64,000 nt of DNA from Burkholderia ubonensis (GTDB lineage: Bacteria; Pseudomonadota; Gammaproteobacteria; Burkholderiales; Burkholderiaceae): contig NZ_CADFEB010000007.1 in assembly GCF_902833085.1 (NCBI RefSeq), forward strand, positions 124,001-188,000. Reading direction: 5' to 3'. The translations under genes and the position numbers were made by a program. The notes below the pieces were generated by a model, which saw only the letters and a list, made by a program, of their open reading frames with translations, was not told the origin of the DNA and searched no databases. Shown here piece after piece: positions 27,446-41,043 of this stretch. Position 1 is the first letter of the stretch; each line of letters begins with the position of its first letter.

Positions 27446-28031
27446 GCGCGCGCGGGTGGGCGGCGGCTCGGACGACGGGGCAGACGAGGCCGCCCGGCGC
27501 TTCTTCGTCGTGACGGGTGGGCCCGGCTCGGGCAAGAGCACGCTGATCGATGCGCTCGAGCGCGCCGGCTTCGCGCGTTCACAGGAAGCGGGGCGCGGGG
27601 TGATCCAGGACCAGATGGCGGTCGACGGCCCCGCGCTGCCGTGGCGCGACCGGAGCGCGTTCGCCGAGCTGATGCTGGGCTGGGAGATGCGTTCGCACCA
27701 TCTTGCGCGGAAGGCGCGCGGGCCGGTGTTCTTCGATCGCGGCGTGCCGGACGTGATCGGCTACCTGCGCCTGTCGGGGCTCGCGGTGCCCGCGCACGCG
27801 GAGGCTGCTGCGCGGCGCTTTCGCTATCACCGGCGCGTGTTCATCGCGCCGCCGTGGCCCGACATCTACGCGCAGGATGCCGAGCGCCGGCAGGATTTCG
27901 CGGAAGCGGTGCGCACTTATGAAGCGATGGTCGAATGCTATGCGTCGTACGGCTATCGGCTGATCGAGCTGCCGCGCGCGAGCGTGACGGTGCGCGTGCG
28001 TTTCGTGCTGGATGCGCTCGACGCGACATGA
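27438..28031 (+). CDS. AAA_28-type P-loop ATPase/kinase
   Basis: The 197-residue protein has Walker A VTGGPGSGKST near residue 25 and a Walker B-like VFFDRGVPDVIGYL near 97, the pattern of the AAA_28 family of small predicted kinases or ATPases. The family is widespread and its substrate is not established. The eight-base overlap with otsA suggests translational coupling, so a role around trehalose or sugar metabolism is possible but unsupported by motif. Confidence 0.88.
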   Translation: MSERARVGGGSDDGADEAARRFFVVTGGPGSGKSTLIDALERAGFARSQEAGRGVIQDQMAVDGPALPWRDRSAFAELMLGWEMRSHHLARKARGPVFFDRGVPDVIGYLRLSGLAVPAHAEAAARRFRYHRRVFIAPPWPDIYAQDAERRQDFAEAVRTYEAMVECYASYGYRLIELPRASVTVRVRFVLDALDAT

Positions 28032-28052
28032 TGCGCGCCGGCGCCGGCCCGG

Positions 28053-29420
28053 TCAGGCCGATGCGTTCGGCTGCGGCGCCGCGATGCGCAGCGTGCTGAC
28101 GACGGCGGCGCAGGCCGCGAACGCGGCGGCGACGTAGAGCGCGACGGTCGGCCCGTGCGCGGGCGCGATCCCGAAGATCAGCGCAACGAGCGCGGCGCCG
28201 AGCGTCTGGCCGGTCAGCCGCGCGGTGCTGAGCATGCCGCCCGCGCCGCCGGCGCGCGAGCGCGGCGCCGACGACAGGATCGCGCGGTTGTTCGGCGACT
28301 GGAACAGGCCGAAGCCCGCGCCGCACAGCGCCATCCGCCACGCGATGTCGACGCTGTCCGGATGCGCGCCGATCGTCGCGAGCGACAGCAGGCCCGCCGC
28401 GAACAGCGCGAGCCCGATCCCGCCCAGCATGCCGGCCGAGTAGCGGTCCGACAGCACGCCGGAGAGCGGCGCGGCCACGACGATCACGAGCGGCCACGGC
28501 GTCATGTAGAGGCCCGTCTGCACCTGCGAGAAGCCGAGCGAATGCTGCAGCCAGAACGGCAGCGCGACGAACGCGAGCATCTGCGACGTAAACGACGCGA
28601 TCGACGTGCAGATCGACAATGCGAACAGCGGGATGCGCATCAGGTCGACCGGCAGCAGCGGCGCCGGCTGCGACAGCTGCCGCTTCACGAAGAACCAGCC
28701 GACGACGAGCGCGACCGTCAGCTCCGCCGCGACGTATGCGCCGCGCTCGCCGTGGCCGAGCCCGTCGACGGCCATGATCAGCAGCCCGAACACGCACGCG
28801 TTCATCAGCGCGCTCGGGATGTCGTACGGCGCATCGTGCAGCGGATTGGCGGGGAGTGCGCGCATGCTGCCGAGCACCGCGGCGATGCCGATCGGCACGT
28901 TGATCGCGAACAGCCACGGCCACGGCGCGACCGACAGCACCGCCGACGCGACGGTCGGACCGACGGCCGACGACAGCGCGACCACCATCGCATTGATCGA
29001 CAGGCCGCGCCCGAGCATCGACGTCGGATAGATCATCCGCACGAGCGCGGCGTTGACGCTCATGATGCCCGCCGCGCCGAATCCCTGGATTACGCGCATT
29101 ACCGCGAGCGTCGGCAGCGAACCGGCGAGCGCGCAGCCGAGCGACGCGGCGGTGAACAGCGCGAGGCCCGCGATGTAAACGCGCCGGTAGCCGATGCGCT
29201 CGCCGAGCGACGCGAGCGGCAGCAGCGTGATCGTGACCGCGAGCTGGTACGCGTTGACGATCCAGATCGATGCGGCATCGGACGCGCGCAGGTCATGCGC
29301 GATGGTCGGCAGCGCGACGTTGGCGATCGCGCCGTCGAGCACGGCGAGCGTGATGCCCAGCGCGACGCAGACGATCGCCCAGTAGCGTTGCGGAAGGGGC
29401 AGGCCGGTATCGGGATTCAT
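28053..29420 (-). CDS. MFS drug efflux pump, DHA2 (EmrB/QacA) type
   Basis: The 455-residue protein has about 14 hydrophobic segments. The N terminus QRYWAIVCVALGITLAVLDGAIANVALPTIAHDL is the DHA2 motif D1, the LGERIGYRRVYIAGL stretch is motif A, and RVIQGFGAAGIMSVNAALV is motif B. Such proteins export hydrophobic drugs or metabolites by proton antiport. The gene appears monocistronic and convergent with the AAA_28 gene. Substrate unknown. Confidence 0.92.
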   Translation of the reverse strand: MNPDTGLPLPQRYWAIVCVALGITLAVLDGAIANVALPTIAHDLRASDAASIWIVNAYQLAVTITLLPLASLGERIGYRRVYIAGLALFTAASLGCALAGSLPTLAVMRVIQGFGAAGIMSVNAALVRMIYPTSMLGRGLSINAMVVALSSAVGPTVASAVLSVAPWPWLFAINVPIGIAAVLGSMRALPANPLHDAPYDIPSALMNACVFGLLIMAVDGLGHGERGAYVAAELTVALVVGWFFVKRQLSQPAPLLPVDLMRIPLFALSICTSIASFTSQMLAFVALPFWLQHSLGFSQVQTGLYMTPWPLVIVVAAPLSGVLSDRYSAGMLGGIGLALFAAGLLSLATIGAHPDSVDIAWRMALCGAGFGLFQSPNNRAILSSAPRSRAGGAGGMLSTARLTGQTLGAALVALIFGIAPAHGPTVALYVAAAFAACAAVVSTLRIAAPQPNASA

Positions 29421-29585
29421 GGCGAAAGCGTGTCGGCCCCGGGCCGGGATGCGGCGCTGGGGCGTCCTTGTGGGGTTCGACGGCGGGAAGGCGCGGGCGG
29501 CGCGGACCCTTGCGGGTGCGAGCCGGCCGAGTGTATCACCGGGCCGCGCAACGCGTTGTCGACGCCGGCCGTGGGGCCTGCGCGG

Positions 29586-29966
29586 TCATCCCTCGAAGTC
29601 GAGGCCGCCGAGCCGCACGACCGGATCGGCCTGCGTGCGTGACGCGAGATCGACGTCGCGCGCGCTCTGCCACGCGGACAGCTTTCTCGGCAGCGCGGCC
29701 AGGTAGTGCTCGAAGCGCGCTTCGCCTTCCGGCGCCATCAGCCGTTCGATTTCGTCGGTATCCCAGGTCAGCTCGAGGTTCAGCGGATGCACGAAGCCGC
29801 TCACGTGTTCGTGCGGCGCGCTGCGGACGCGGACCTGCGACGGGTGGCCGTGACCGCCATACGGGACGACTTCGGTCTGCACATGGTCGGCGAAGAAGGC
29901 GGCGATCGCGTGCGCGATGCGCGGCGCGAATTCGGTATCGAAACGGCGGGCGGTCTCGGGCTGCAT
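29586..29966 (-). CDS. Conserved hypothetical protein, 126 aa
   Basis: The protein is soluble and acidic and starts MQPETARRFDTEFAPRIAHAIAAFF, with AGGAGA upstream deciding the start. It contains a His/Gly-rich turn (VPYGGHGHPSQVRV) and an LELTWDTDEIERLMAPEGEARFEHYLAALPRKL helix pair. There is no signal peptide or membrane segment. Related proteins are, as far as I recall, confined to Burkholderia and relatives. No function can be suggested. Confidence 0.82.
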   Translation of the reverse strand: MQPETARRFDTEFAPRIAHAIAAFFADHVQTEVVPYGGHGHPSQVRVRSAPHEHVSGFVHPLNLELTWDTDEIERLMAPEGEARFEHYLAALPRKLSAWQSARDVDLASRTQADPVVRLGGLDFEG

Positions 29967-30121
29967 GCAGGCGTCTCCTTGGTCCCGAAAATGTAGCACG
30001 GCGCTTGTGCGTTTTGGCTCGCCGGTTCGGCGTAAACGTGCGTTACCACTTGCTGCATCTATTACCGCGGGCCGCGTCCACAATGCATCGCATCCCGTAC
30101 CACTTCGCGTGGGAGTGCAAC

Positions 30122-30505
30122 ATGAAAAAGATCGCTGCAGTGTGTGTCCTCGCCGGTTCGCTCGCCGTCGCCGGCCCCGCGTCCGCGCATGATCGCGGCG
30201 GTGCCGTCATCGGCGCGCTGATCGGCGGCGCGGTGCTGGGCGCCATCGTGACGTCCGCGCTGAATCCGCCGGTCGCGTACGCCGCGCCGGTGTATCAGGC
30301 GCCCGCCTATCAGCCGCCGACGTATTACCAGGCGCCGGCGTATCAACCGCCGGCCTATGCGCCGGGTTATCAGCAGGCGCAGTACCAGGACGATGACGGC
30401 TATGGCGGCCAGCCCCGCTATTGCTACGATCGCTACCAGCGCGCGTACGTGTGCGGCGCGCCGGCGTCGGGCGGTTACGGCTATGCGCAGCCGGGCGGAT
30501 GGTGA
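30122..30505 (+). CDS. Secreted glycine-zipper protein with YQ/AP repeats
   Basis: The 127-residue protein has a Sec signal peptide MKKIAAVCVLAGSLAVAGPASA, a glycine-zipper hydrophobic stretch (GGAVIGALIGGAVLGAIV), and then short repeats of the form YQAPAYQPP. It ends in a tyrosine-rich segment with two Cys (RYCYDRYQRAYVCG). It is probably associated with the envelope. Function unknown. A strong hairpin follows about 65 bp downstream. Confidence 0.85.
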   Translation: MKKIAAVCVLAGSLAVAGPASAHDRGGAVIGALIGGAVLGAIVTSALNPPVAYAAPVYQAPAYQPPTYYQAPAYQPPAYAPGYQQAQYQDDDGYGGQPRYCYDRYQRAYVCGAPASGGYGYAQPGGW

Positions 30506-30571
30506 GCGTGGTGGCCGGCGCGTGAGCGGTAGTCGCGACGCGGTGTCGTGATTCGTGCCGTTGAAAAGCGG

Positions 30572-30603
30572 AAGGCCCTCGCATCGAGCGAGGGCCTTGT
30601 TCG
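30572..30603. terminator. Hairpin terminator between convergent genes
   Basis: An 11-bp perfect stem AAGGCCCTCGC/GCGAGGGCCTT with loop ATCGA is followed by TTGTTCGTT-like T-rich sequence. Convergent genes face it from both sides. Confidence 0.8.
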
Positions 30604-30709
30604 TTGGTGGGGCGCCGGTGTCGCGGCAATTGCGCGGTCATGGCGCGCATGCCGAGTCATTCGCGTCGCTGCACGGCGCCCGCGCCGGATACAAACGGTT
30701 GCAATTGCG

Positions 30710-31093
30710 TCAGTGCCAGCGGCCGTTGCCGCGGTCGTTGTCGCCCTGGCCGCCGCGCCAATCCCGGGCGCCGCCGCTCGCGCGATTGCCTTCGGTCGGG
30801 CGGTTGCCGCGATTCCAGCCGCCGTTGCCGTTGCCGCGATCGCCCCAGTTGCGATCGCCCCAGCCACGGTCGCGTCGCCAGTCGCGGTCGTCGCGCCGGT
30901 AATCGTGGCGATCCCAATCCCGACCGCCGCCCCAGACGTTGACCGTGCCGTACACGGGTGCATACGCGGGGCCGTACGCGTAGCCGGGGTCCGAGTAATA
31001 GGTTTGTCCGTAGCCGTAGCCGGCGTCCGGCGCGACGACGCAGCCGGCCAGCAGCGTGGCGACGGCGGCGGTGGTGGCGATGAGCTTGATCAT
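30710..31093 (-). CDS. Lipoprotein with Gly/Asn/Asp/Arg/Trp-rich tail
   Basis: The protein has 127 residues. The leader MIKLIATTAAVATLLAGC is a clear lipobox. The mature part is Tyr/Gly-rich (DAGYGYGQTYYSDPGYAYGPAYAPVYG), then a low-complexity tail of D, R, W, G and N residues (for example DWDRHDYRRDDRDWRRDRGWG). GGGAGA precedes the ATG. Probably surface or outer-membrane associated and disordered. Function unknown. Confidence 0.82.
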   Translation of the reverse strand: MIKLIATTAAVATLLAGCVVAPDAGYGYGQTYYSDPGYAYGPAYAPVYGTVNVWGGGRDWDRHDYRRDDRDWRRDRGWGDRNWGDRGNGNGGWNRGNRPTEGNRASGGARDWRGGQGDNDRGNGRWH

Positions 31094-31232
31094 GGCGTTC
31101 TCCCTTGGCGCGAATCATAAGAGGCGGAACGCCGCGCATCTGCCACCAATTGTGTCTCAAAATTACAGCGAAGTAAGGTCGGCGGGCGGAAGTGTTAGCA
31201 TCTGGAACTCATTGTTTTTCAGGAGCACATCG

Positions 31233-31733
31233 ATGAAATTCGCGATCCGGGCCGCACTGGCCGCCATTTGCGTGACGAGCGCCGCCGCGTGCGCGGCAGG
31301 GCCGGCGTCGGAGGCCGCCGTGACGGCCGAGTCGATCAAGATGTTCCCGCAGGCCGCGGCTGGCCAGCAGCGCGCGGTGATCGCGCTGCCCGCGCTCACC
31401 GATGAAGCCGGCGCGCGCGTCGAGCTGATGATCGGCAAGACGCTGCAGACCGACTGCAACCAGCAGTGGTTCGGCGGCGAGTTGAGCGCCGAGACCGTAC
31501 AGGGCTGGGGCTATACGTACTACCGGCTGTCCGATGTGAAGGGACCGGCGTCGACGCTGATGGCCTGCCCGGGACAGGCGCCGCGCGAGCGGTTCGTGCA
31601 GGTGCGCGGCGACGATCAACTGCTGCGCTACAACAGCCGGCTGCCGATCGTCGTGTACGTGCCGGACGGGTTCGAGGTGCGGTATCGCGTGTGGCGCGCG
31701 TCGGATGACGTGAAGCGCGCGGCCGTGCAGTAA
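31233..31733 (+). CDS. eco: Ecotin, periplasmic serine protease inhibitor
   Basis: The 166-residue protein is exported by an N-terminal signal peptide. The ecotin fold is clear: IKMFPQAAAGQQRAVIAL, VELMIGKTLQTDCN, GWGYTYYRLSDVKGPASTLMACPG, LLRYNSRLPIVVYVPDGFEVRYRVWRA. The reactive-site P1 residue is M110 in STLMAC, as in E. coli ecotin, and the stabilising disulfide would be C75-C112. Ecotin dimers inhibit trypsin-like proteases such as neutrophil elastase, a plausible host defence function. AGGAG upstream supports the start. Confidence 0.95.
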   Translation: MKFAIRAALAAICVTSAAACAAGPASEAAVTAESIKMFPQAAAGQQRAVIALPALTDEAGARVELMIGKTLQTDCNQQWFGGELSAETVQGWGYTYYRLSDVKGPASTLMACPGQAPRERFVQVRGDDQLLRYNSRLPIVVYVPDGFEVRYRVWRASDDVKRAAVQ

Positions 31734-31903
31734 CGCGTTGGAGTGACGGGCCGCGTGGGCGTCGCGGAACGGCGATGCCTGCGTGGCTCCACGAGGACTT
31801 TAGTTGCCGCCGCAGGAGCGGGCTCGGACTGAGGTGGGCTCGCATCTGGCCGATGCCATTGCATGTCCGCGAAACGGGGCATGCAAGTTGCAGCGGATAA
31901 AAC

Positions 31904-31935
31904 AAAAAGCCCGCTTGCGTTCGCATAGCGGGCTT
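31904..31935 (-). terminator. Terminator of tRNA-fMet
   Basis: The stem AAGCCCGCT/AGCGGGCTT, read on the minus strand, is followed by TTTTTGTTTT. It starts six bases beyond the tRNA 3' end. Confidence 0.92.
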
Positions 31936-31941
31936 CGATGT

Positions 31942-32018
<77 letters not shown>

Positions 32019-32024
32019 GCGCGA

Positions 32025-32053
32025 ATTGTACTCATACCCGGACACCGCGTCAA
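32025..32053 (-). promoter_or_regulatory. Promoter of tRNA-fMet
   Basis: On the minus strand TTGACG (32053-32048) is separated by exactly 17 bases from TACAAT (32030-32025), which ends seven bases before the mature tRNA 5' end. Confidence 0.85.
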
Positions 32054-32340
32054 ACGAATCGTCCTGACGAGAACGTTGCGGACTCAACGTTGCTTGGTGG
32101 GATGCTACGCGTTCGAAATGGCTGCGTCGTCGGATCTGCTCATTTGCGTTCGGCATCAATCACTTTGGACGGACAGCCTGCCTGATTGGCATCCGGGTGT
32201 CGACTGAAGTCGTTCGTCGCGTGCGGTTGCGCGTCAGGTTGGAAATCGTGTGTCGATGGGCGGCTGGATTGTCGCGACCCCCAGAACACCCCGAGGCAAG
32301 GGGTTGTTCGTGCTGGCGGTCGAGTGCGGAAGCGTGCAAC

Positions 32341-32372
32341 AAAAAACCCCGCAAAGCCAAGCCTGGCGGGGG
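32341..32372 (-). terminator. Orphan minus-strand terminator, probably displaced from tRNA-Arg
   Basis: CCCCGC (32347-32352) pairs with GCGGGG (32366-32371) and on the minus strand is followed by TTTTTT. No gene ends just upstream of it. It lies 36 bp beyond an att-like copy of the tRNA-Arg 3' end, exactly where the original tRNA-Arg terminator would be left after island insertion. Confidence 0.8.
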
Positions 32373-32407
32373 TCTCTTGTGACACGCTGCAAAGCCCTGA
32401 AGGATGT

Positions 32408-32425
32408 CTGGTCCCCGACAGAATT
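32408..32425. other. Candidate attL (decayed tRNA-Arg 3' end copy)
   Basis: CTGGTCCCCGACAGAATT matches the 3' end of tRNA-Arg at 35650-35669 (CTGGTCCCCCCGACAGGAAT) except for missing CC and one missing G. This is expected for the chromosomal 3' end displaced by integration and then free to drift. Confidence 0.6.
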
Positions 32426-32470
32426 CATATCTCACGGCCGGGTGGGCTCAGCGGGTTCAGATTATCCGTA

Positions 32471-32492
32471 GATACCAACAAAAATACCAACA
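32471..32492. repeat. Integrase arm-like direct repeat, left copy
   Basis: The 22-bp sequence beginning GATACCAACA and ending ATACCAACA is identical to 35517-35538 near the other island end. It lies about 45 bp inside the att-like site. Confidence 0.85.
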
Positions 32493-32569
32493 GGCGTATC
32501 GGCGTAGGCTGGATTAGCCGAAGGGGACGTTGTGCGTAAGCTTGTCGTGCCGCCGGAAGCAAAAATATC

Positions 32570-32683
32570 TGGAGATTTGGAGATATACACTCGTTTCGGC
32601 TTGTGAGCCTTGTGCGGCAAGGCTGTGGTTATCTCCAAGTCTATCTCCAAAGTACACATTTTCTTGGAGACAAATCTGGAGAT
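32570..32683. repeat. Cluster of six TGGAGAT-type heptamers
   Basis: TGGAGAT occurs forward at 32570, 32578 and 32677, TGGAGAC at 32665, and the reverse ATCTCCA at 32631 and 32643. Pairs are spaced 8, 12 and 12 bp apart. The pattern resembles a multi-site protein-binding region such as excisionase or iteron sites. Confidence 0.75.
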
Positions 32684-33011
32684 ACGCGGCAGGCCGTCGG
32701 GTATCGTCTCGGGCATTTTGCAAACTGCACCCGCCGGCTGGAACGCTCGCGCAAAGGAATCCCCCGCCGCCGCGTTACTCGCGGCCCGTCAACCGCCATG
32801 CGGCGTGACATCCCAAAGGTACTTTCCGCTTGTCGTGCTTGAGGTTAGGGCAGGCGACTACTGCCGTACGCTCCGTCATCACATCGCATAATATGGCTCG
32901 CGCCGGCGTATCCGTTACGGCAGGCATTGGGCTGGCGGGACAGCCCTAATCGCACAATCAGACAGCAAGATACAACTGTTTGCGCAATAAGAAGATGCAT
33001 CGATTAAGACA

Positions 33012-34496
33012 ATGTTGAGTCAATTCTCTGCGCTTAACGCGCTCAAGAACAGTGGGCAATGGAAACGTTGGTCTCATTATCGGGCGTTCATGCGAGACAA
33101 GGCCGACTCGCTGCTCAACGATCGTGATTCGGAGGAAAACGAGGCTAGCCGGCTACCGACAGGCGAGAGCGTTCGCTTGGCAGCTGTGTGGGTCTCCGAG
33201 CTGTACACCCCATCACAAATTGGGGGCTTGTTCGAAGGATTGTCACGCCTCGGTTGGGAACACGGGCTAAGTCGTGACGACAGTATCGTCGCCTGGACAA
33301 ATGACGTCAGGCAAGGACGAAGCGCGGGCTGGGTAAGTCTCGGCATGGTGACGTCCTCTGGCCGCTTCGGGAGCGAGCGTATCGCAGAGTTACCTTCCGG
33401 CATCGGGTCTGCTCACCCAATTCTGATGTCGTTGACGCCAAGCATTACCGCACTTGTCATCACGTTCTATATGAACGATGACACGTCACGGGCGCTGGAT
33501 CGACCTCTACGGGAAGACTATTCGACCTGCTACGAGGAAGGACCCGGCCTAGAATGGTGGAATATTGCTGCCTATGTGCTGCTCGGGAAAAAAACTCGTT
33601 TCAGTCGAACTATTCACAATCCTGATTCGCAAAGGCGACGATCCGTGGCCGCCTGTGTCTCCCAGATCGAGGCCGGCTGTACAGCCTGGGTCCGCCGGAA
33701 TCTTCCCGGTGTATTTGCTTCCGGATTGCGCGGGGGATTCTTCCCGACAGCCACGTTGATGGTTACGGAGGAGGTTAATCCGGGTACCGAAAACTTGCGC
33801 CCCATTCGTGCGCTCGAAGGGCTCTCAATTGACCGTGACTTTGATGCTTGGGTATCGGATCACTGGCCGTGCGCGCGCCTCGTACTGCCCGGACCCTACG
33901 ACGACAACGACTTGCGCCTCACGTTTGCTTGTAGGCGCAGGGATGCATTTCCGGAAACACCTGGATACGTCGACCCGACCTCCGATGGGACGATCGCATA
34001 TCGTGCAAACGAAATGATTCGAGGGCTGCTTTCTCGTTGGGCTATCACCGGCATGTTGGACGGATATCACGAACAACTGTCAAGGCTTCGTGATAAGTCG
34101 GCAGGCGCACGTTCTTACCGGCCAGTCAGGGACCTAAAGCAGCTACGTTCACTGGTACGCACTCAACTGTACGACGTGGAACTCTCTGCCCACGAGATTA
34201 CCCAGTTCACAAAGGACGTGTGGTATCGCGTCAATATCCCAAATATGCGTCTGATGGAATCTCGCCATGGCAGACAGTCGAATTTGGTCGATAGCCTACG
34301 AAATGCGCAACACCAACGCGCTGCACAGGTTTCAAGGGAAAGTGAACTGCTCAAGTCTGTCTTGTCGTTGAGCAGCGATCTGTCCCAGACGATCACAAAT
34401 CTTCGAATTCAGTGGTTTATCGTCCTCCTGACGCTGGTTTCGATTGGTATCGCCATTGCCGCCTTGTATGTGGCGGAGTTAGCTCTGCCGAAATAG
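33012..34496 (+). CDS. Unknown island cargo protein with C-terminal membrane anchor
   Basis: The 494-residue protein belongs to no family I recognise. Residues 1-420 look soluble and globular, rich in Trp and Arg, with no signal peptide and no visible nucleotide-binding, nuclease or protease motif. Residues about 425-465 are helical and coiled-coil-like (RNAQHQRAAQVSRESELLKSV and on), and 468-490 form one hydrophobic segment (WFIVLLTLVSIGIAIAAL), giving a tail-anchored layout with the bulk in the cytoplasm. Codon use is clearly less GC-biased than in the neighbours. It is the only intact gene between the att-like sites. The start lacks a good ribosome-binding site. Phage defence or island maintenance are guesses. 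Confidence 0.85.
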   Translation: MLSQFSALNALKNSGQWKRWSHYRAFMRDKADSLLNDRDSEENEASRLPTGESVRLAAVWVSELYTPSQIGGLFEGLSRLGWEHGLSRDDSIVAWTNDVRQGRSAGWVSLGMVTSSGRFGSERIAELPSGIGSAHPILMSLTPSITALVITFYMNDDTSRALDRPLREDYSTCYEEGPGLEWWNIAAYVLLGKKTRFSRTIHNPDSQRRRSVAACVSQIEAGCTAWVRRNLPGVFASGLRGGFFPTATLMVTEEVNPGTENLRPIRALEGLSIDRDFDAWVSDHWPCARLVLPGPYDDNDLRLTFACRRRDAFPETPGYVDPTSDGTIAYRANEMIRGLLSRWAITGMLDGYHEQLSRLRDKSAGARSYRPVRDLKQLRSLVRTQLYDVELSAHEITQFTKDVWYRVNIPNMRLMESRHGRQSNLVDSLRNAQHQRAAQVSRESELLKSVLSLSSDLSQTITNLRIQWFIVLLTLVSIGIAIAALYVAELALPK

Positions 34497-34560
34497 CCAC
34501 TAATTCGATGAGGCAACACGCGAAAAAGGGTCCTCGGAAGTGGGCTTGACTGATAGAGCT

Positions 34561-35011
34561 TTACTCTGCGTTACGCACTCGCATGATGGTCTGCACGGCT
34601 CGTGCCGTACTGCTTTGCGAGGCCGGCAACAGTCGCCCCTTCGCCGAGGCGCCGCCGAACTTCGGCTTGCTGCAGTTTGGAAAGTGCGGGCGGTCGGCCC
34701 ATCGACTTCCCTTCCGCCTTTGCCCGCGCGATGCCAGCCTGCGTCCGCTCGATCAATAAGTCGCGTTCAAACTCGGCGACGGCGTTCAATACCTGCATCG
34801 TCATCCGGCCGGCCGCGCTGGTCAGATCAACACCGCCAAGCGCGAGACAATGAATCCGAATGCCGCGATCCGCCAGAGCCTCCACAGTCGCGCGTACGTC
34901 CATCGCGTTGCGGCCGAGCCGGTCGAGCTTCGTTACTATCAGTACGTCGCCTTCCTCCATCCTGCGGAGCAAGTCTGCGAACCCCGGCCGTTGCTCTGCG
35001 CTGACGCTACC
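34561..35011 (-). pseudogene. Serine resolvase remnant (5'-truncated, frameshifted)
   Basis: The readable part begins with GSVSAEQRPGFADLLRRMEEGD, then VLIVTKLDRLGRNAMDV, the core of Tn3-family resolvases, then the helix ERDLLIERTQAGIARAKAEG and the HTH start (GATVAGLAKQYGTSR). The N-terminal catalytic Ser region (about 50-60 residues) is missing, replaced by integrase sequence. One extra G after TSR shifts the frame near 34595: the annotated frame ends RADHHASA, while the other frame continues QTIMRVRNAE to a TAA at 34561, the expected resolvase ending. The gene cannot make an active recombinase. Confidence 0.88.
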
Positions 35012-35487
35012 CCGCGCGCTTCGACCTCACGCACGATGCTCAGCATCTGCGGCGAATCGATCTCCGCGATCGGGCGAGGGCCGATCTTCGGAAACACGTC
35101 GACCTCAAGCGAATTCAGCACCTTCTCCGCGTAGCCGTCGCTCCAGCCCGGACGCTGAGAGTCGAACCACTCGCGGGCTACCGCTTCGAACGAGTTGGCC
35201 GCTGCGATCTCGGCGGCCCGTCTGGCTTCCTTCTTCGCCTCGCCCGGATCGATGCCGGCCGCGATCTGCTCGCGCGCCTCGTCGCGCTTCTTCCGTACCG
35301 TCGCGAGCGTGACGGCGGGATAGACGCCGAGGGCGAGCGTCTTCTGCTTGCCAAGGAAGCGGTAGGACAAGCGCCAGTACTTCGCGCCGTTCGGTTGGAC
35401 GAGCAAGAACATTCCGTTGCCGTCCGTGAGTTTGTACGGGGCCGCGCTGGCCTTCGCGTTCCGTACCTGCACGTCAGTGAGAGGCAT
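34939..35487 (-). pseudogene. P4-type tyrosine integrase, 3'-truncated
   Basis: The start MPLTDVQVRNAKASAAPYKL and the blocks GMFLLVQPNGAKYWRLSYRF and LALGVYPAVTLATVRKKRDEA are the DUF4102 arm-binding domain of P4-like integrases, followed by the core-binding SAM-like domain (FEAVAREWFDSQRPGWSDGYAEKVLNSLE). After about EARG (residue 157) homology stops and the frame reads resolvase DNA out of frame to a stop at 34939. The whole catalytic domain with the R-H-R-Y residues (about 220 aa) is gone. The gene lies beside tRNA-Arg in the usual orientation for such islands. Confidence 0.9.
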
Positions 35488-35489
35488 TG

Positions 35490-35538
35490 TTGGTATCTGT
35501 GTTGTTGGTATCTGCTGATACCAACAAAAATACCAACA
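35490..35538. repeat. Integrase arm-like repeats, right end
   Basis: TTGGTATCTG occurs at 35490 and 35505, followed by the inverted GATACCAACA at 35517 and ATACCAACA at 35530. The last two are the 22-bp repeat shared with 32471-32492. They overlap the integrase leader, as arm-type sites commonly do. Confidence 0.8.
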
Positions 35539-35650
35539 CTTTCTCCGGCTGTCACTGAGCAACCTTGGGTAACGATGGGAGCGAGAAGTCCGCCAGACGG
35601 GCCTGAGCGGGCGATTTCTTGTGAATCTTGGGGATGGTTTGGGGCTTGGC

Positions 35651-35725
35651 TGGTCCCCCCGACAGGAATCGAACCTGTATCTAGCGCTTAGGAGGCGCTT
35701 GTTCTATCCATTGAACTACGGGGAG
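35651..35725 (-). tRNA. tRNA-Arg (CCU)
   Basis: The 75-nt cloverleaf includes an encoded CCA. The anticodon stem-loop AGCGC-CTCCTAA-GCGCT gives anticodon CCU for AGG. The T-arm ACAGG-TTCGATT-CCTGT is intact. The 3' end faces the decayed integrase gene, so this is the insertion target. A TATACT-like -10 lies about 60 bp upstream (35793-35788). Confidence 0.95.
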
Positions 35726-35852
35726 AGCCTGCGATTCCGGCGTATCGCGCACGGCGCGCACCGGACAGCGGTATGGACAGCGCGCAGAGTATAGCAAACG
35801 CGCGTTCGCACCGGCACACGGAAATCCATGCGCGCGCGAACGCGCCGCGCGA

Positions 35853-36035
35853 TCAGAAATCGACGACGACGAAGTCGTCCTTGCCCACGTCGCACAGCGG
35901 GCAGCGCCAGTCGGCGGGGATGTCGGCGAAGCGGGTGCCGGGCGCGATGCCCTCGTCGGGCAGCCCTTCCGCCTCGTTGTAGACCCACCCGCAAATCAGG
36001 CAGACCCAGCTTTGATATTCGGTCACTTCGCTCAT
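35853..36035 (-). CDS. Rubredoxin
   Basis: The 60-residue iron protein has two CxxC knuckles, CLICG near residue 12 and CPLCDVGKDDF near 45, which ligate one Fe in a tetrahedral site. The spacing and the aromatic core residues (Y, W, F) are typical of single-domain rubredoxins. It carries electrons for oxidoreductases in the cytoplasm; the partner is not encoded nearby. Confidence 0.95.
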   Translation of the reverse strand: MSEVTEYQSWVCLICGWVYNEAEGLPDEGIAPGTRFADIPADWRCPLCDVGKDDFVVVDF

Positions 36036-36234
36036 GTTGCGCTCACGATATTGAAATCAGGGTGATGCCGTCCGCGGCCCGGCCGGCGGACGAAACGCGC
36101 AATGGTACCGGAATTTCGCCGAACTCGGCCGCAACGTCGTTTTAAACGTGCGCATCGCGAACAATGCGACCAAGGCACGCGTGCCATGCGTGCGGTGTAT
36201 GCTTCCCGGGCTGTCCAATCATCAGGAGAAAAGG

Positions 36235-36642
36235 ATGCTCAACAGAAAGTGGATCGCAGGTGCCGTGTGCGTGGCGGCGATGGCCGTATCGACGATCGCG
36301 CGGGCCGAAGCGCGCGTGTATTTCGTCGAGCCGGCGGAAGGCGCGACGGTATCGAACCCGGTGCACGTGAAGTTCGGTCTCGAAGGCGACATGCTGCTCC
36401 GGCCGGCCGGCGACATGACGCCGCACACCGGTCATCATCACTTGCTGATCGACGGCAGACCGATTCCGACCGGCGACGTGATCCCGGCGAGTGAACGCTC
36501 GCTGCACTTCGGCAAGGCCCAGACCGAAACCGACATCAGGCTGCCGCCGGGTCAGCATACGCTGACGCTGCAGTTCGGCGATGGCGCACACCGGTCGTAT
36601 GGTCCCGAGATGAGCCAGACGATCATCGTCAACGTCAAGTAA
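36235..36642 (+). CDS. DUF4399-type secreted protein
   Basis: The 135-residue protein has a signal peptide ending STIARA. The mature domain contains VYFVEPAEGATVSNPVHVKFGLEGD, a His-rich loop MTPHTGHHHLLID and the C-terminal LTLQFGDGAHRSYGPEMSQTIIVNV. This matches the DUF4399 family, a periplasmic immunoglobulin-like domain; the HTGHHH cluster may bind metal. AGGAGAAAAGG before 36235 decides the start. Stand-alone gene. Function unknown. Confidence 0.88.
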   Translation: MLNRKWIAGAVCVAAMAVSTIARAEARVYFVEPAEGATVSNPVHVKFGLEGDMLLRPAGDMTPHTGHHHLLIDGRPIPTGDVIPASERSLHFGKAQTETDIRLPPGQHTLTLQFGDGAHRSYGPEMSQTIIVNVK

Positions 36643-36853
36643 GCGGGCGCACCCGTGCGGGCGGCCCGGCCGTCCTTGCGAGACGCGCCCGTCCGCCGTC
36701 CGCAACCAGTCGTCGCGAGTCCTCCGCCCGCGCGCGGCGGCCGGCAGCCGGCCCGCACGGCCGGCCTTGCGGCATCATCCGTTCGGCCAGACCGGTGGCG
36801 GCGTCCGCCACCGGTACAATGAGCGCTTCCGATTTCTCTTCGCCGTCTTCCCC

Positions 36854-38800
<1,947 letters not shown>

Positions 38801-38995
38801 CGCGGCGCGGGGCGGCCCGTCGCGCGTGCGTGCGCCGCCGTGCTGCACCGCCGCGCATTTCGTCCGATGGCGCGCCGCGCGGAACCAGTAGAATACGGCG
38901 CGTTTCGGGCTCTCGCGGCGTGCGCCGCGCGCCCGCTTTCGGAGCACTCCAAGCACACCGTTGTTTCGATTCGCTTTTTTGCGGAACTCAACGTT

Positions 38996-39030
38996 TTGTC
39001 CACGACGTTATCCACACGAGGTGTGGACAA
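38996..39030. promoter_or_regulatory. DnaA-box cluster upstream of parE
   Basis: TTGTCCACG (38996-39004), the perfect box TTATCCACA (39008-39016) and reverse TGTGGACAA (39022-39030) lie in 35 bp. The last two form a near-perfect dyad TTATCCACAC-GAG-GTGTGGACAA. The cluster ends 30 bp before the parE ATG. Confidence 0.8.
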
Positions 39031-39060
39031 CGTCCCGATGAATGACGAAATTCAGCGCCT

Positions 39061-41043
39061 ATGTCAACGAAGAAGCCCAGCGCGGCCTATAGCGAAGCAT
39101 CGATCAAGGTGCTCAAGGGTCTCGAGCCGGTCAAGCAGCGGCCCGGCATGTACACCCGTACCGAGAATCCGCTGCACATCATCCAGGAAGTCATCGACAA
39201 CGCTTCGGACGAGGCGCTCGGCGGCTACGGCAAGCAGATCACCGTGACGCTGCATGCCGATCATTCGGTGTCCGTCGAGGACGACGGCCGCGGCATTCCG
39301 TTCGGCCTGCACCCGGAAGAAGGCGTGCCGGTCGTCGAGATCGTGTTCACGCGCCTGCACGCGGGCGGCAAGTTCGACAAGGCCGCGGGCGGCGCCTATA
39401 CGTTCTCGGGCGGCCTGCACGGCGTCGGCGTGTCGGTGACGAACGCGCTCGCGACGCGCCTCGACGTGACCGTCTGGCGCGACGGCAAGATCGCCGAGCT
39501 CGGCTTTGCCGAAGGCGACGTCGTGAAGCCGTTGTCCACGCAGGCTGCGGGCCGCGGCGAGAAGAAGTCCGGCACGCGCGTGCAGGTCTGGCCGAACCCG
39601 AAATACTTCGATTCGCCCAACCTGCCGCTCGGCGAGCTGCAGCGCCTGTTGCGCTCGAAGGCCGTGCTGCTGCCGGGCGTCGAGGTCGTGCTCGTCAACG
39701 AGAAGACCGGCGAGCGGCAGGCCTGGAAGTACGAGGACGGCCTGCGCGGCTACCTGCTCGACGAGATGAACGGCAGCGAGCTGCTGATCCCGCTGTTCGA
39801 AGGCGAGCGCTTCGCCGATTCGCGTTCGGGCGACGACACGTTCGCCGAAGGCGAGGGCGCATCGTGGGTCGTTGCATGGAGCGAGGAAGGCTCGCTCGTG
39901 CGCGAGTCGTACGTGAACCTGATCCCGACGCCGGCCGGTGGCACGCATGAATCGGGGCTGCGCGACGGCCTCTATCAGGCGGTGAAGAGCTTCGTCGAGC
40001 TGCACAACCTGCAGCCGAAGGGCGTGAAGCTGCTCGCGGAAGACGTGTTCGCGCGCGTGTCGTTCGTGCTGTCCGCGAAGGTGCTCGATCCGCAGTTCCA
40101 AGGCCAGATCAAGGAGCGCCTGAACAGCCGCGACGCGGTCAAGCTCGTGTCGTCGTTCTCGCGCCCGGCGCTCGAGCTGTGGCTGAACCAGCACGTCGAG
40201 CACGGCAAGAAGCTCGCCGAACTGGTGATCAAGCAGGCGCAGGCGCGCACCCGCGCGGGCCAGAAGGTCGAGAAGCGCAAGAGCTCGGGCGTCGCGGTGC
40301 TGCCCGGCAAGCTGACCGACTGCGAGACCGAGGATATTGCACGCAACGAGCTGTTCCTGGTCGAGGGCGACTCGGCGGGCGGTTCCGCGAAGATGGGCCG
40401 CGACAAGGAATACCAGGCGATCCTGCCGCTGCGCGGCAAGGTGCTGAACACCTGGGAAACCGAGCGCGACCGCCTGTTCGCGAACAACGAGGTGCACGAC
40501 ATCTCGGTCGCGATCGGCGTCGATCCGCACAGCCCGGACGACGGCGTCGACCTGTCGAACCTGCGCTACGGCAAGATCTGCATCCTGTCGGACGCGGACG
40601 TCGACGGCTCGCACATCCAGGTGCTGCTGCTGACGCTGTTCTTCAAGCACTTCCCGCAGCTGATCGAGCGCGGCAACGTGTTCGTCGCGCGTCCGCCGCT
40701 GTTCCGCGTCGACGCGCCGGCGCGCGGCAAGAAGCCCGCGCAGAAGCTGTACGCGCTCGACGAAGGCGAGCTCGAAGCGATCCTCGACAAGCTGCGCAAG
40801 GACGGCGTGCGCGACACCCAGTGGAGCATCAGCCGCTTCAAGGGTCTCGGCGAAATGAGCGCCGAGCAGCTGTGGGACACGACGATGAACCCCGACACCC
40901 GCCGCCTGATGCCGGTGAAGCTCGGCGAGCTCGACTACGAGTCGACGGTCGCGCGGATGACGATGCTGATGGGCAAGGGCGAGGCGGCCGCACGGCGCGG
41001 CTGGCTCGAGGAAAAGGGCAACGAGGTCGAAGCGGATATTTGA
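39061..41043 (+). CDS. parE: DNA topoisomerase IV subunit B
   Basis: The 660-residue ATPase subunit works with ParC to decatenate daughter chromosomes. The GHKL ATPase domain is at the N terminus (EVIDNASDEALGG, DDGRGIPFGLHPEEGVPVVE, GGLHGVGVSVTNAL), then the transducer, then the TOPRIM domain with FLVEGDSAGGSAKMGRDKE near residue 435 and the metal-binding DADVDGSHI near 515. The short length and lack of a GyrB insertion favour ParE over GyrB, and parC follows 58 bp downstream. Confidence 0.96.
   Translation: MSTKKPSAAYSEASIKVLKGLEPVKQRPGMYTRTENPLHIIQEVIDNASDEALGGYGKQITVTLHADHSVSVEDDGRGIPFGLHPEEGVPVVEIVFTRLHAGGKFDKAAGGAYTFSGGLHGVGVSVTNALATRLDVTVWRDGKIAELGFAEGDVVKPLSTQAAGRGEKKSGTRVQVWPNPKYFDSPNLPLGELQRLLRSKAVLLPGVEVVLVNEKTGERQAWKYEDGLRGYLLDEMNGSELLIPLFEGERFADSRSGDDTFAEGEGASWVVAWSEEGSLVRESYVNLIPTPAGGTHESGLRDGLYQAVKSFVELHNLQPKGVKLLAEDVFARVSFVLSAKVLDPQFQGQIKERLNSRDAVKLVSSFSRPALELWLNQHVEHGKKLAELVIKQAQARTRAGQKVEKRKSSGVAVLPGKLTDCETEDIARNELFLVEGDSAGGSAKMGRDKEYQAILPLRGKVLNTWETERDRLFANNEVHDISVAIGVDPHSPDDGVDLSNLRYGKICILSDADVDGSHIQVLLLTLFFKHFPQLIERGNVFVARPPLFRVDAPARGKKPAQKLYALDEGELEAILDKLRKDGVRDTQWSISRFKGLGEMSAEQLWDTTMNPDTRRLMPVKLGELDYESTVARMTMLMGKGEAAARRGWLEEKGNEVEADI

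What the first reader, a model, noticed from the sequence alone, without database searches (positions are those of the whole stretch)
33012..34496. Unknown tail-anchored protein as sole island cargo
A 494-aa protein with a large soluble part, a coiled coil and one C-terminal membrane helix is the only intact gene of the island and matches no family I know. Single-gene cargo kept in a decayed island suggests selection, for example phage defence or a surface trait. This is the best candidate in the window for something undescribed; its function is pure inference.
Basis: inference. Interest (0 to 1): 0.72.

Follow-up and report, generated by a model that had tools for sequence, protein, structure and literature searches.

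The report
Candidate phage-defence gene in satellite remnant
A bacterial chromosome keeps one intact gene from an otherwise broken-down mobile element; its few known relatives sit mostly on viruses, satellite-like elements and plasmids, so it may be an undescribed membrane-anchored protein that protects cells against competing viruses, although nobody has tested it.

Summary
Window 33012-34496 (+) encodes an intact 494-aa protein with a C-terminal membrane segment. It is the only intact gene recognised in a 3.2-kb island (about 32422-35649) at the 3' end of a tRNA-Arg gene. Two of six relatives fetched lack the island, their left flank joined straight to the tRNA. The island's integrase is cut short and its resolvase lacks its start. 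Another relative has a complete integrase at this tRNA (94% identical where shared) beside a P4-type primase, so the island looks like a decayed P4-like satellite.

No Pfam, NCBIfam, PADLOC, PHROGs or PDB-sequence match was significant. I found 13 homologous loci, 10 with an open gene; the closest are 48-49% identical, most others 19-26%. The window copy is the only one in 65 genus genomes. Eleven of 13 loci are on or beside a mobile element, including the portal side of a P2-like prophage and a plasmid defence cluster.

Best reading: a single-gene, membrane-anchored anti-phage cargo. The association is shown; activity and mechanism are inferred. A faint resemblance of the C-terminal stalk and helix to CorA channels beats controls for the family, not for the window's subfamily, and is unproven. 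Probably a new family of a known kind of cargo.

The parts
33012..34496 (+). 494-aa protein P0001: N-terminal alpha/beta part, helical stalk, C-terminal membrane helix
   Evidence: homologues
34278..34415 (+). codons 423-468, long helix (stalk or coiled coil) leading to the membrane segment
   Evidence: model secondary structure
34416..34478 (+). codons 469-489, C-terminal membrane segment
   Evidence: hydropathy; strongest segment lies near the C-terminus in 10 of 10 members measured
32422..35649 (.). island segment absent at the same tRNA in two of six relatives fetched (G022/L056, G010/L057)
32408..32421 (.). left attachment core, CTGGTCCCCGACAG
35650..35665 (.). right attachment core, CTGGTCCCCCCGACAG, overlapping the tRNA 3' end
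35651..35725 (-). tRNA-Arg (CCT), integration target
34939..35562 (-). integrase fragment (arm domain and part of the central domain; match to L059/L060 stops at 35004-35008)
34571..34972 (-). serine resolvase/invertase fragment lacking its start
32463..32492 (.). subterminal 30-nt direct repeat, copy 1
35509..35538 (.). subterminal 30-nt direct repeat, copy 2 (90%)

Best explanation
P0001 is the cargo of a decayed P4-like satellite (or a close relative) integrated in tRNA-Arg, and it belongs to an undescribed, sparsely distributed family of single-gene anti-phage proteins. The N-terminal and middle part (about 420 residues, most likely cytoplasmic) would sense an infection cue and be held at the inner membrane by the helical stalk and the C-terminal helix; activation would assemble or shift the membrane helices and disturb the membrane or block phage development there (abortive infection or exclusion). 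Shown: intact gene, C-terminal membrane segment, island boundaries, broken mobility genes, homologues in phage, satellite-like, plasmid and defence contexts. Inferred: anti-phage activity, cytoplasmic orientation, sensing, membrane effect.
For: Island absent in L056/L057 with the left flank joined to the tRNA. L059 has a complete integrase (stretch shared with the window 93.7% identical) at the same tRNA plus a PriCT_2/Toprim/DUF927 primase-helicase. 11 of 13 homologous loci are on or beside a mobile element. L008 lies directly beside the portal gene of a P2-type prophage, the gpQ side of the hotspot where P2 itself carries old and tin (PMC9122126, passages). L004 lies beside Helicase and DUF2290, SIR2_2 and LmuB-like genes; a Helicase+DUF2290 system inhibited phage T7 in that paper. 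The strongest hydrophobic segment is C-terminal in 10 of 10 members measured.
Against: No phage challenge exists. Plasmid and viral collections are mobile by choice; outside them the count is 5 of 7 loci, the window included, and L018 (beside a gyrB-like gene, 15 kb seen) shows no mobile gene. PADLOC was given only to neighbours of L004 (seven), L023 (four, no match) and L012 (one, SIR2), to the L006 partner (no match) and to the window's two fragments (no match). The L012 copy is a broken fragment, so its SIR2 neighbour says little. No catalytic or pore motif was recognised. Orientation is open: several members have positive residues in the tail after the membrane segment (L007, L008, L011, L018). 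A second hydrophobic stretch is present in 9 of 9 members (1.3-2.1). Foldseek found nothing at E <= 0.001. No homologue in 50,697 phage records with three members as query.
Confidence: 0.5

Rival explanations
1. Entry or superinfection exclusion: a membrane-anchored lysogenic-conversion protein that blocks DNA injection or an early step of related phages, without killing the cell.
For: Phage-borne copies: beside the P2-type portal gene in L008 and near an amidase gene in L007 (Rz-like neighbours are read by eye). The gene looks single in most loci (by eye; L008 and L023 have a close same-strand neighbour).
Against: A soluble part of about 420 residues is large for known small exclusion proteins (recalled). 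Spread over plasmids and satellite-like elements is wider than expected for a self-immunity gene.
Confidence: 0.18
2. A CorA-derived membrane effector: the last part of a CorA-like stalk and its first membrane helix fused to a new sensing domain, comparable to the CRISPR-associated CorA effectors, forming an oligomeric pore.
For: Foldseek's best PDB matches for the P0001 model are CorA (37 of the top 50; best E 0.026, probability 0.96). Weak CorA matches of stalk plus helix: Pfam in 2 of 8 members scanned, best 0.006; PADLOC 0.0044-0.019 in 4 of 8 members scanned. A profile of 24 CorA proteins aligns with the family in register at stalk end and first membrane helix (probability 11-17%, P 0.0028-0.0015), and the score 29.6 exceeds 200 of 200 column shuffles, 50 of 50 stalk shifts and 120 of 120 partial shuffles.
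Against: The subfamily of P0001 (three members) alone does not align there (score 15.8, about the shuffle mean), and 27 of 200 shuffles of P0001 reach its CorA score (0-100 of 200 across the nine). A shift of the stalk by one heptad still gives 28.0, so coil periodicity explains much. TM-scores of the CorA matches are 0.1-0.24 and the second model has no CorA in its top 50. No second C-terminal helix and no GMN.
Confidence: 0.17
3. Element maintenance or helper-phage interference: the protein stabilises or mobilises the element, or lets a satellite interfere with its helper, rather than defending against phages in general.
For: Found on elements of different kinds, including an 8.5-kb mobilizable plasmid that also has a RelE/ParE-type pair and a satellite-like element in Comamonas.
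Against: No fixed partner gene was seen (by eye). Loci include a conjugative plasmid and phages, which do not share one transfer mechanism.
Confidence: 0.13
4. Passenger without a defence role, for example a stress or envelope protein picked up by mobile elements.
For: L018 stands beside a gyrB-like gene with no mobile gene in the 15 kb read. Function is untested.
Against: Patchy spread across Pseudomonadota and Actinomycetota with near-absence in the genus (1 of 65), and two loci near defence genes, fit defence better.
Confidence: 0.15

Closest known systems
Defence cargo of P2-like phage and P4-like satellite hotspots (Rousset et al. 2022, PMC9122126; passages seen)
   Same: Location: L008 at the portal (gpQ) side of the P2-type hotspot; the window gene in an island with a P4-type integrase remnant. 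Some cargos there are single genes, some include membrane proteins.
   Different: No match to PADLOC 2.0.0; activity untested; the window element is decayed.
CRISPR-associated CorA effectors (PMC10600005; passages seen)
   Same: Large soluble N-terminal part followed by C-terminal helices in the membrane; faint CorA-like stalk and first helix in the wider family.
   Different: No CRISPR gene recognised by eye near the window gene, no NrN partner seen, one C-terminal membrane helix; CorA likeness not seen in the window's own subfamily.
CorA magnesium channels (PF01544)
   Same: Long helix running into a membrane helix in one model.
   Different: No second C-terminal helix, no GMN, below the Pfam cut-off in the 8 members scanned; not replicated in the second model.

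Membership tests
CorA (PF01544) | Profile score over the curated cut-off (27 bits) | tested here: not met
   No match for P0001; best of 8 members scanned E 0.006 (16.4 bits for L006)
CorA (PF01544) | Two C-terminal membrane helices with a GMN-type loop | tested here: not met
   One C-terminal segment and tails of 3-41 residues without GMN in 9 of 9 members printed
CorA (PF01544) | Profile-profile relationship | tested here: inconclusive
   Family: probability 11-17%, above all shuffle and shift controls; P0001 subfamily alone: not aligned there
CorA (PF01544) | CorA fold in predicted structure | tested here: inconclusive
   37 of the top 50 for model 1, none of the top 50 for model 2; models of mean pLDDT 60 and 53
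CRISPR-associated CorA effector | Encoded with type III CRISPR genes and an NrN or lyase partner | tested here: inconclusive
   None recognised by eye among ORFs of window 28000-40000 or in the annotations around L002-L005; no profile search for cas genes was run
P2/P4 hotspot defence cargo | Lies between gpA and gpQ of a P2-like phage, or between psu and int of a P4-like satellite | tested here: inconclusive
   L008 homologue is adjacent to the portal gene, with terminase, scaffold and P2 capsid genes following; gpA and psu were not looked for
P2/P4 hotspot defence cargo | Confers phage resistance | not testable with these tools
   Needs phage challenge
P4-like satellite (the element) | tRNA-targeting integrase of the Arm-DNA-bind_3/Phage_int_M type | tested here: met
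   Both domains in the fragment (the second in part); insertion at the tRNA-Arg 3' end. The link of these domains to P4 is recalled
P4-like satellite (the element) | P4-type primase-helicase | tested here: not met
   No such gene recognised among the ORFs of the 3.2-kb window island; present beside the complete integrase in L059

The most novel reading that the evidence does not exclude
A new protein family of self-contained, one-gene immune proteins in which a new cytoplasmic alpha/beta sensing domain is wired through a (perhaps CorA-derived) helical stalk to a single C-terminal membrane helix that does the killing or the block, spread across Pseudomonadota and Actinomycetota on phages, satellite-like elements and plasmids, and in at least one phage placed next to a HEPN-like gene.
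Probability: 0.33. Interest if true: 0.68.

Novelty: new member of a known kind. Interest (0 to 1): 0.43.

Why it matters
If active, this is an undescribed defence family that the libraries searched here miss, with members that are rare and often only 19-26% alike to this one. One gene would carry sensor and effector, which makes it easy to test, and the Comamonas and prophage copies offer intact versions. It also shows that a decayed satellite can leave only its cargo behind in a chromosome.

Tried and rejected
CorA. I first built a CorA profile from 17 proteins and scored shuffles with it (65 of 200 shuffles reached P0001; 3-128 of 200 across the nine; profile-profile probability 2.3%, P 0.021). 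On checking I found that loci of minus-strand matches were not turned, so matches of minus-strand places were dropped or misread, at least one of the 17 (L070) among the misread. I repeated it with 24 of 26 CorA loci (L063 and L067 gave no frame) and added controls. The repeat is more favourable to CorA for the family but not for the P0001 subfamily. I therefore moved the CorA rival from 0.10 to 0.17, the exclusion rival from 0.20 to 0.18 and the best explanation from 0.52 to 0.50. The P0001 model's Foldseek viral search has an Mg2+ transporter of a Lactobacillus phage at rank 2 (E 0.18).

Other leads. The A6 profile against PDB sequences gave one chain, a cyclodipeptide synthase, E 0.039: not followed. 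The Paracoccus neighbour (452 aa) as relative of the L006 partner: BLASTP E 0.82, rejected. The L006/L008 upstream gene as HEPN: only a recalled R-x4-H motif (RSKIVH); no Pfam or PADLOC family at 0.1 that fits. The first genome-contig scan and four viral scans added no new homologue; 82 gave L007's contig again, and 113, with the partner gene, gave L008's. Phage records hold no relative of the partner. DUF6232: no paper in the library. The G401 match (65 residues, E 4.2e-4) was not counted and not examined further; Arthrobacter H11 (E 5e-4) was not examined. L003 diverges at its C-terminus and L002 is split in two annotated ORFs; neither was used after alignment A1, except that L003 was scanned against Pfam and PADLOC. 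Promoter scan: 2 sites against 1.2 in shuffles, none on the gene's strand; terminator scan 1 against 3.0.

Full report
1. The gene. Window 33012-34496 (+) is an open frame of 494 codons with stop. The longest stop-free run in the island is 501 codons, against a mean of 159 and a maximum of 343 in 500 base shuffles, and homologues are open elsewhere. GC is 0.551 in the gene and 0.575 in the island, against 0.685 and 0.676 in the flanks. Pfam, PADLOC, NCBIfam, PHROGs and PDB-sequence searches gave nothing meaningful for P0001 (best: Pfam 0.83, PHROGs 0.059, PDB 0.63).

2. The island. tRNA-Arg (CCT) lies at 35651-35725 (-). All 65 genus genomes have a match to 35640-36040; I fetched the region from six. 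In two of the six (L056 of G022, L057 of G010) the tRNA is followed directly by sequence matching window 32421 leftwards, so 32422-35649 is missing; the overlap is the attachment core CTGGTCCCC(CC)GACAG. L056 is not an empty site in full: another integrase follows there. In L058 sequence matching window 31766 leftwards starts 192 bases from the tRNA. L059, L060 and L061 carry sequence matching the window's integrase end at this tRNA.

3. Decay. The integrase frame has the arm domain and 63 of 96 positions of the central domain, and no catalytic domain; its match to L059 and L060 stops at 35004-35008. The resolvase frame starts at position 55 of 145 of its domain. L059 has a complete integrase (the stretch shared with the window, part of the tRNA included, is 93.7% identical over 697 bases) and a 957-aa PriCT_2/Toprim/DUF927 protein, which I recall as the P4-type replication gene. 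I read the window island as a decayed element of that kind.

4. The family. tblastn against 72,556 plasmid records gave 5 records with P0001, 7 with the L006 member, 4 with L004, 4 with L011 and 5 with L023. 50,697 phage records gave none with P0001, L006 and L011. Genome searches: 1 of 65 in the genus, the window's own; 2 of 249 in the family draw; 2 of 369 in the class draw, the own genome and a doubtful 65-residue match; 1 of 398 in the phylum draw, the own genome; 3 of 399 in the order draw, own genome included; 2 of 117 and 1 of 43 in two further families, each including a genome already found. These draws overlap and used different queries. Viral-contig scans gave two contigs; genome contigs gave none with P0001 and two loci with alignment A4. 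L006 and L008 hold the same prophage genes and are counted once. This gives 13 loci: the window, L019, L023, L011, L018, L006/L008, L007, L004, L005, L094, L003, L002 and L012. Ten have an open gene; L002 is split, L003 diverges at its end, L012 is a fragment. L019 and L023 are 48-49% identical to P0001; the others in alignment A6 are 19-21%.

5. Architecture. In 10 of 10 members measured the strongest hydrophobic segment lies near the C-terminus (nine, L094). In the nine it leaves 3-41 residues, and a second, weaker stretch (1.3-2.1) lies at residues 136-209 (L018 has two more above 1.2); in P0001 this overlaps two predicted strands. The P0001 model (4 sequences, mean pLDDT 60, pTM 0.61) shows an alpha/beta part, then long helices ending in the 423-491 helix. 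The L011 model (pLDDT 53, pTM 0.50) gives a similar order of strands and helices in the N-terminal part. Neither supports a fold claim: Foldseek gave no match at E <= 0.001.

6. CorA. For: 37 of the top 50 PDB matches of model 1 are CorA (best E 0.026), there are weak profile matches in some members (Pfam 2 of 8; PADLOC 4 of 8), and a profile of 24 CorA proteins aligns with the family at stalk end and first membrane helix (P 0.0028). The C-terminal part scores 29.6 against a maximum of 25.7 in 200 column shuffles, and none of 50 stalk shifts, 60 helix shuffles or 60 stalk shuffles reaches it (maxima 28.0, 28.0, 24.9). Against: the three-member subfamily of P0001 alone does not align there (15.8); 27 of 200 shuffles of P0001 reach its CorA score, and across the nine members the count is 0-100 of 200; model 2 has no CorA in its top 50; the second C-terminal helix and GMN are absent. 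An earlier version of these tests had misread loci in the profile and is replaced. I treat CorA as a faint resemblance of stalk and helix, unproven for the window gene.

7. Contexts. On or beside a mobile element, 11 of 13: the window island; L023 (tRNA-Lys, integrase, and a DUF6232 gene 31 bases before the homologue); L011 (tRNA-Phe, integrase and Toprim primase); L012 (integrase, MobA/MobL relaxase, SIR2 gene E 2.8e-172); L008 (P2-type prophage); L007 (phage contig, amidase gene near); and five plasmid loci, one on a 1.3-Mb non-mobilizable replicon. Not so: L018 (no mobile gene seen in 15 kb) and L019 (contig edge; downstream genes resemble those of L023 by eye). Six of the 13 (five plasmid loci and L007) come from collections that are mobile by choice; of the other seven, five qualify. 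As a yardstick, the own genome has 8 integrase matches in 7.77 Mb and G1438 has 18 in 3.7 Mb, so 10 kb either side of an integrase covers about 2% and at most 10% of these genomes.

8. Defence links. L008 sits beside the portal gene, with terminase, scaffold and P2-type capsid genes following. Rousset et al. place the P2 defence hotspot between gpA and the portal gpQ, where P2 carries old and tin, and write that membrane proteins of known systems are believed to be effectors of cell suicide (PMC9122126, passages). L004 lies near Helicase (E 9.7e-85) and DUF2290 (3.7e-12), an LmuB-like ATPase (4e-32) and SIR2_2 (1.4e-9). PADLOC was run on seven neighbours at L004, four at L023 (none matched), one at L012 and the L006 partner (none); neighbours of the other loci were not scanned.

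9. Mechanism. Location, C-terminal anchor and patchy spread fit a one-gene anti-phage protein. The 18 residues invariant in A6 are mostly W, G, P, F, L and a few polar ones (E63, R100, T146, Q467 of P0001), without a catalytic pattern that I recognise, so I prefer a sensor-plus-membrane effector over an enzyme. Orientation is not settled: an arginine precedes the helix in P0001 (R465) and in most members, but tails of L007, L008, L011 and L018 also hold positive residues. Purifying selection is visible in the pair L019/L023 (dN 0.156, dS 1.03 by NG86; 0.171 and 0.745 by YN00; 534 codons); for P0001 itself dS could not be estimated.

10. Verdict. The family appears undescribed: it is absent from the libraries searched, and the listings of six literature searches showed no paper that names it, though there is no name to search for. 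The kind of thing, membrane-linked defence cargo on phage-related elements, is known.

Noticed in passing
window 31942-32018: tRNA-Met lies in a segment (31767-32421) between the conserved chromosome and the island; none of the six relatives fetched shows a tRNA-Met in its 6.7-7.2 kb. 32260-32421 resembles the sequence between the tRNA and another integrase in L056, so it may be an older remnant.
   Followed up: partly
window 32463-32492 and 35509-35538: 30-nt direct repeat (90%) just inside both ends of the island; it also matches L059 and L060 near the integrase start. Possible integrase arm sites.
   Followed up: no
L059 1-7001: Apparently complete P4-like element at the same tRNA-Arg with a 232-aa gene (2147-2845) that matches no Pfam family.
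   Followed up: no
L008 3399-4721: 440-aa gene overlapping the start of the homologue in the P2-type prophage, with a recalled HEPN-like motif (RSKIVH) but no fitting Pfam or PADLOC match; possible partner.
   Followed up: partly
L023 8462-8833: DUF6232 gene (E 5.4e-18) 31 bases upstream of the homologue, same strand; possible two-gene unit.
   Followed up: no
tRNA-Arg to rubredoxin-like gene (named by eye), genus genomes: In at least 17 of 65 genomes the tRNA part and the downstream gene matched as separate places, some many kilobases apart (list cut), so the other side of this tRNA also varies.
   Followed up: no
Genome-search loci of minus-strand matches: Such loci (for example L065, L066, L070) are not turned to the plus strand; reading them as turned gave wrong proteins and was corrected.
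   Followed up: yes
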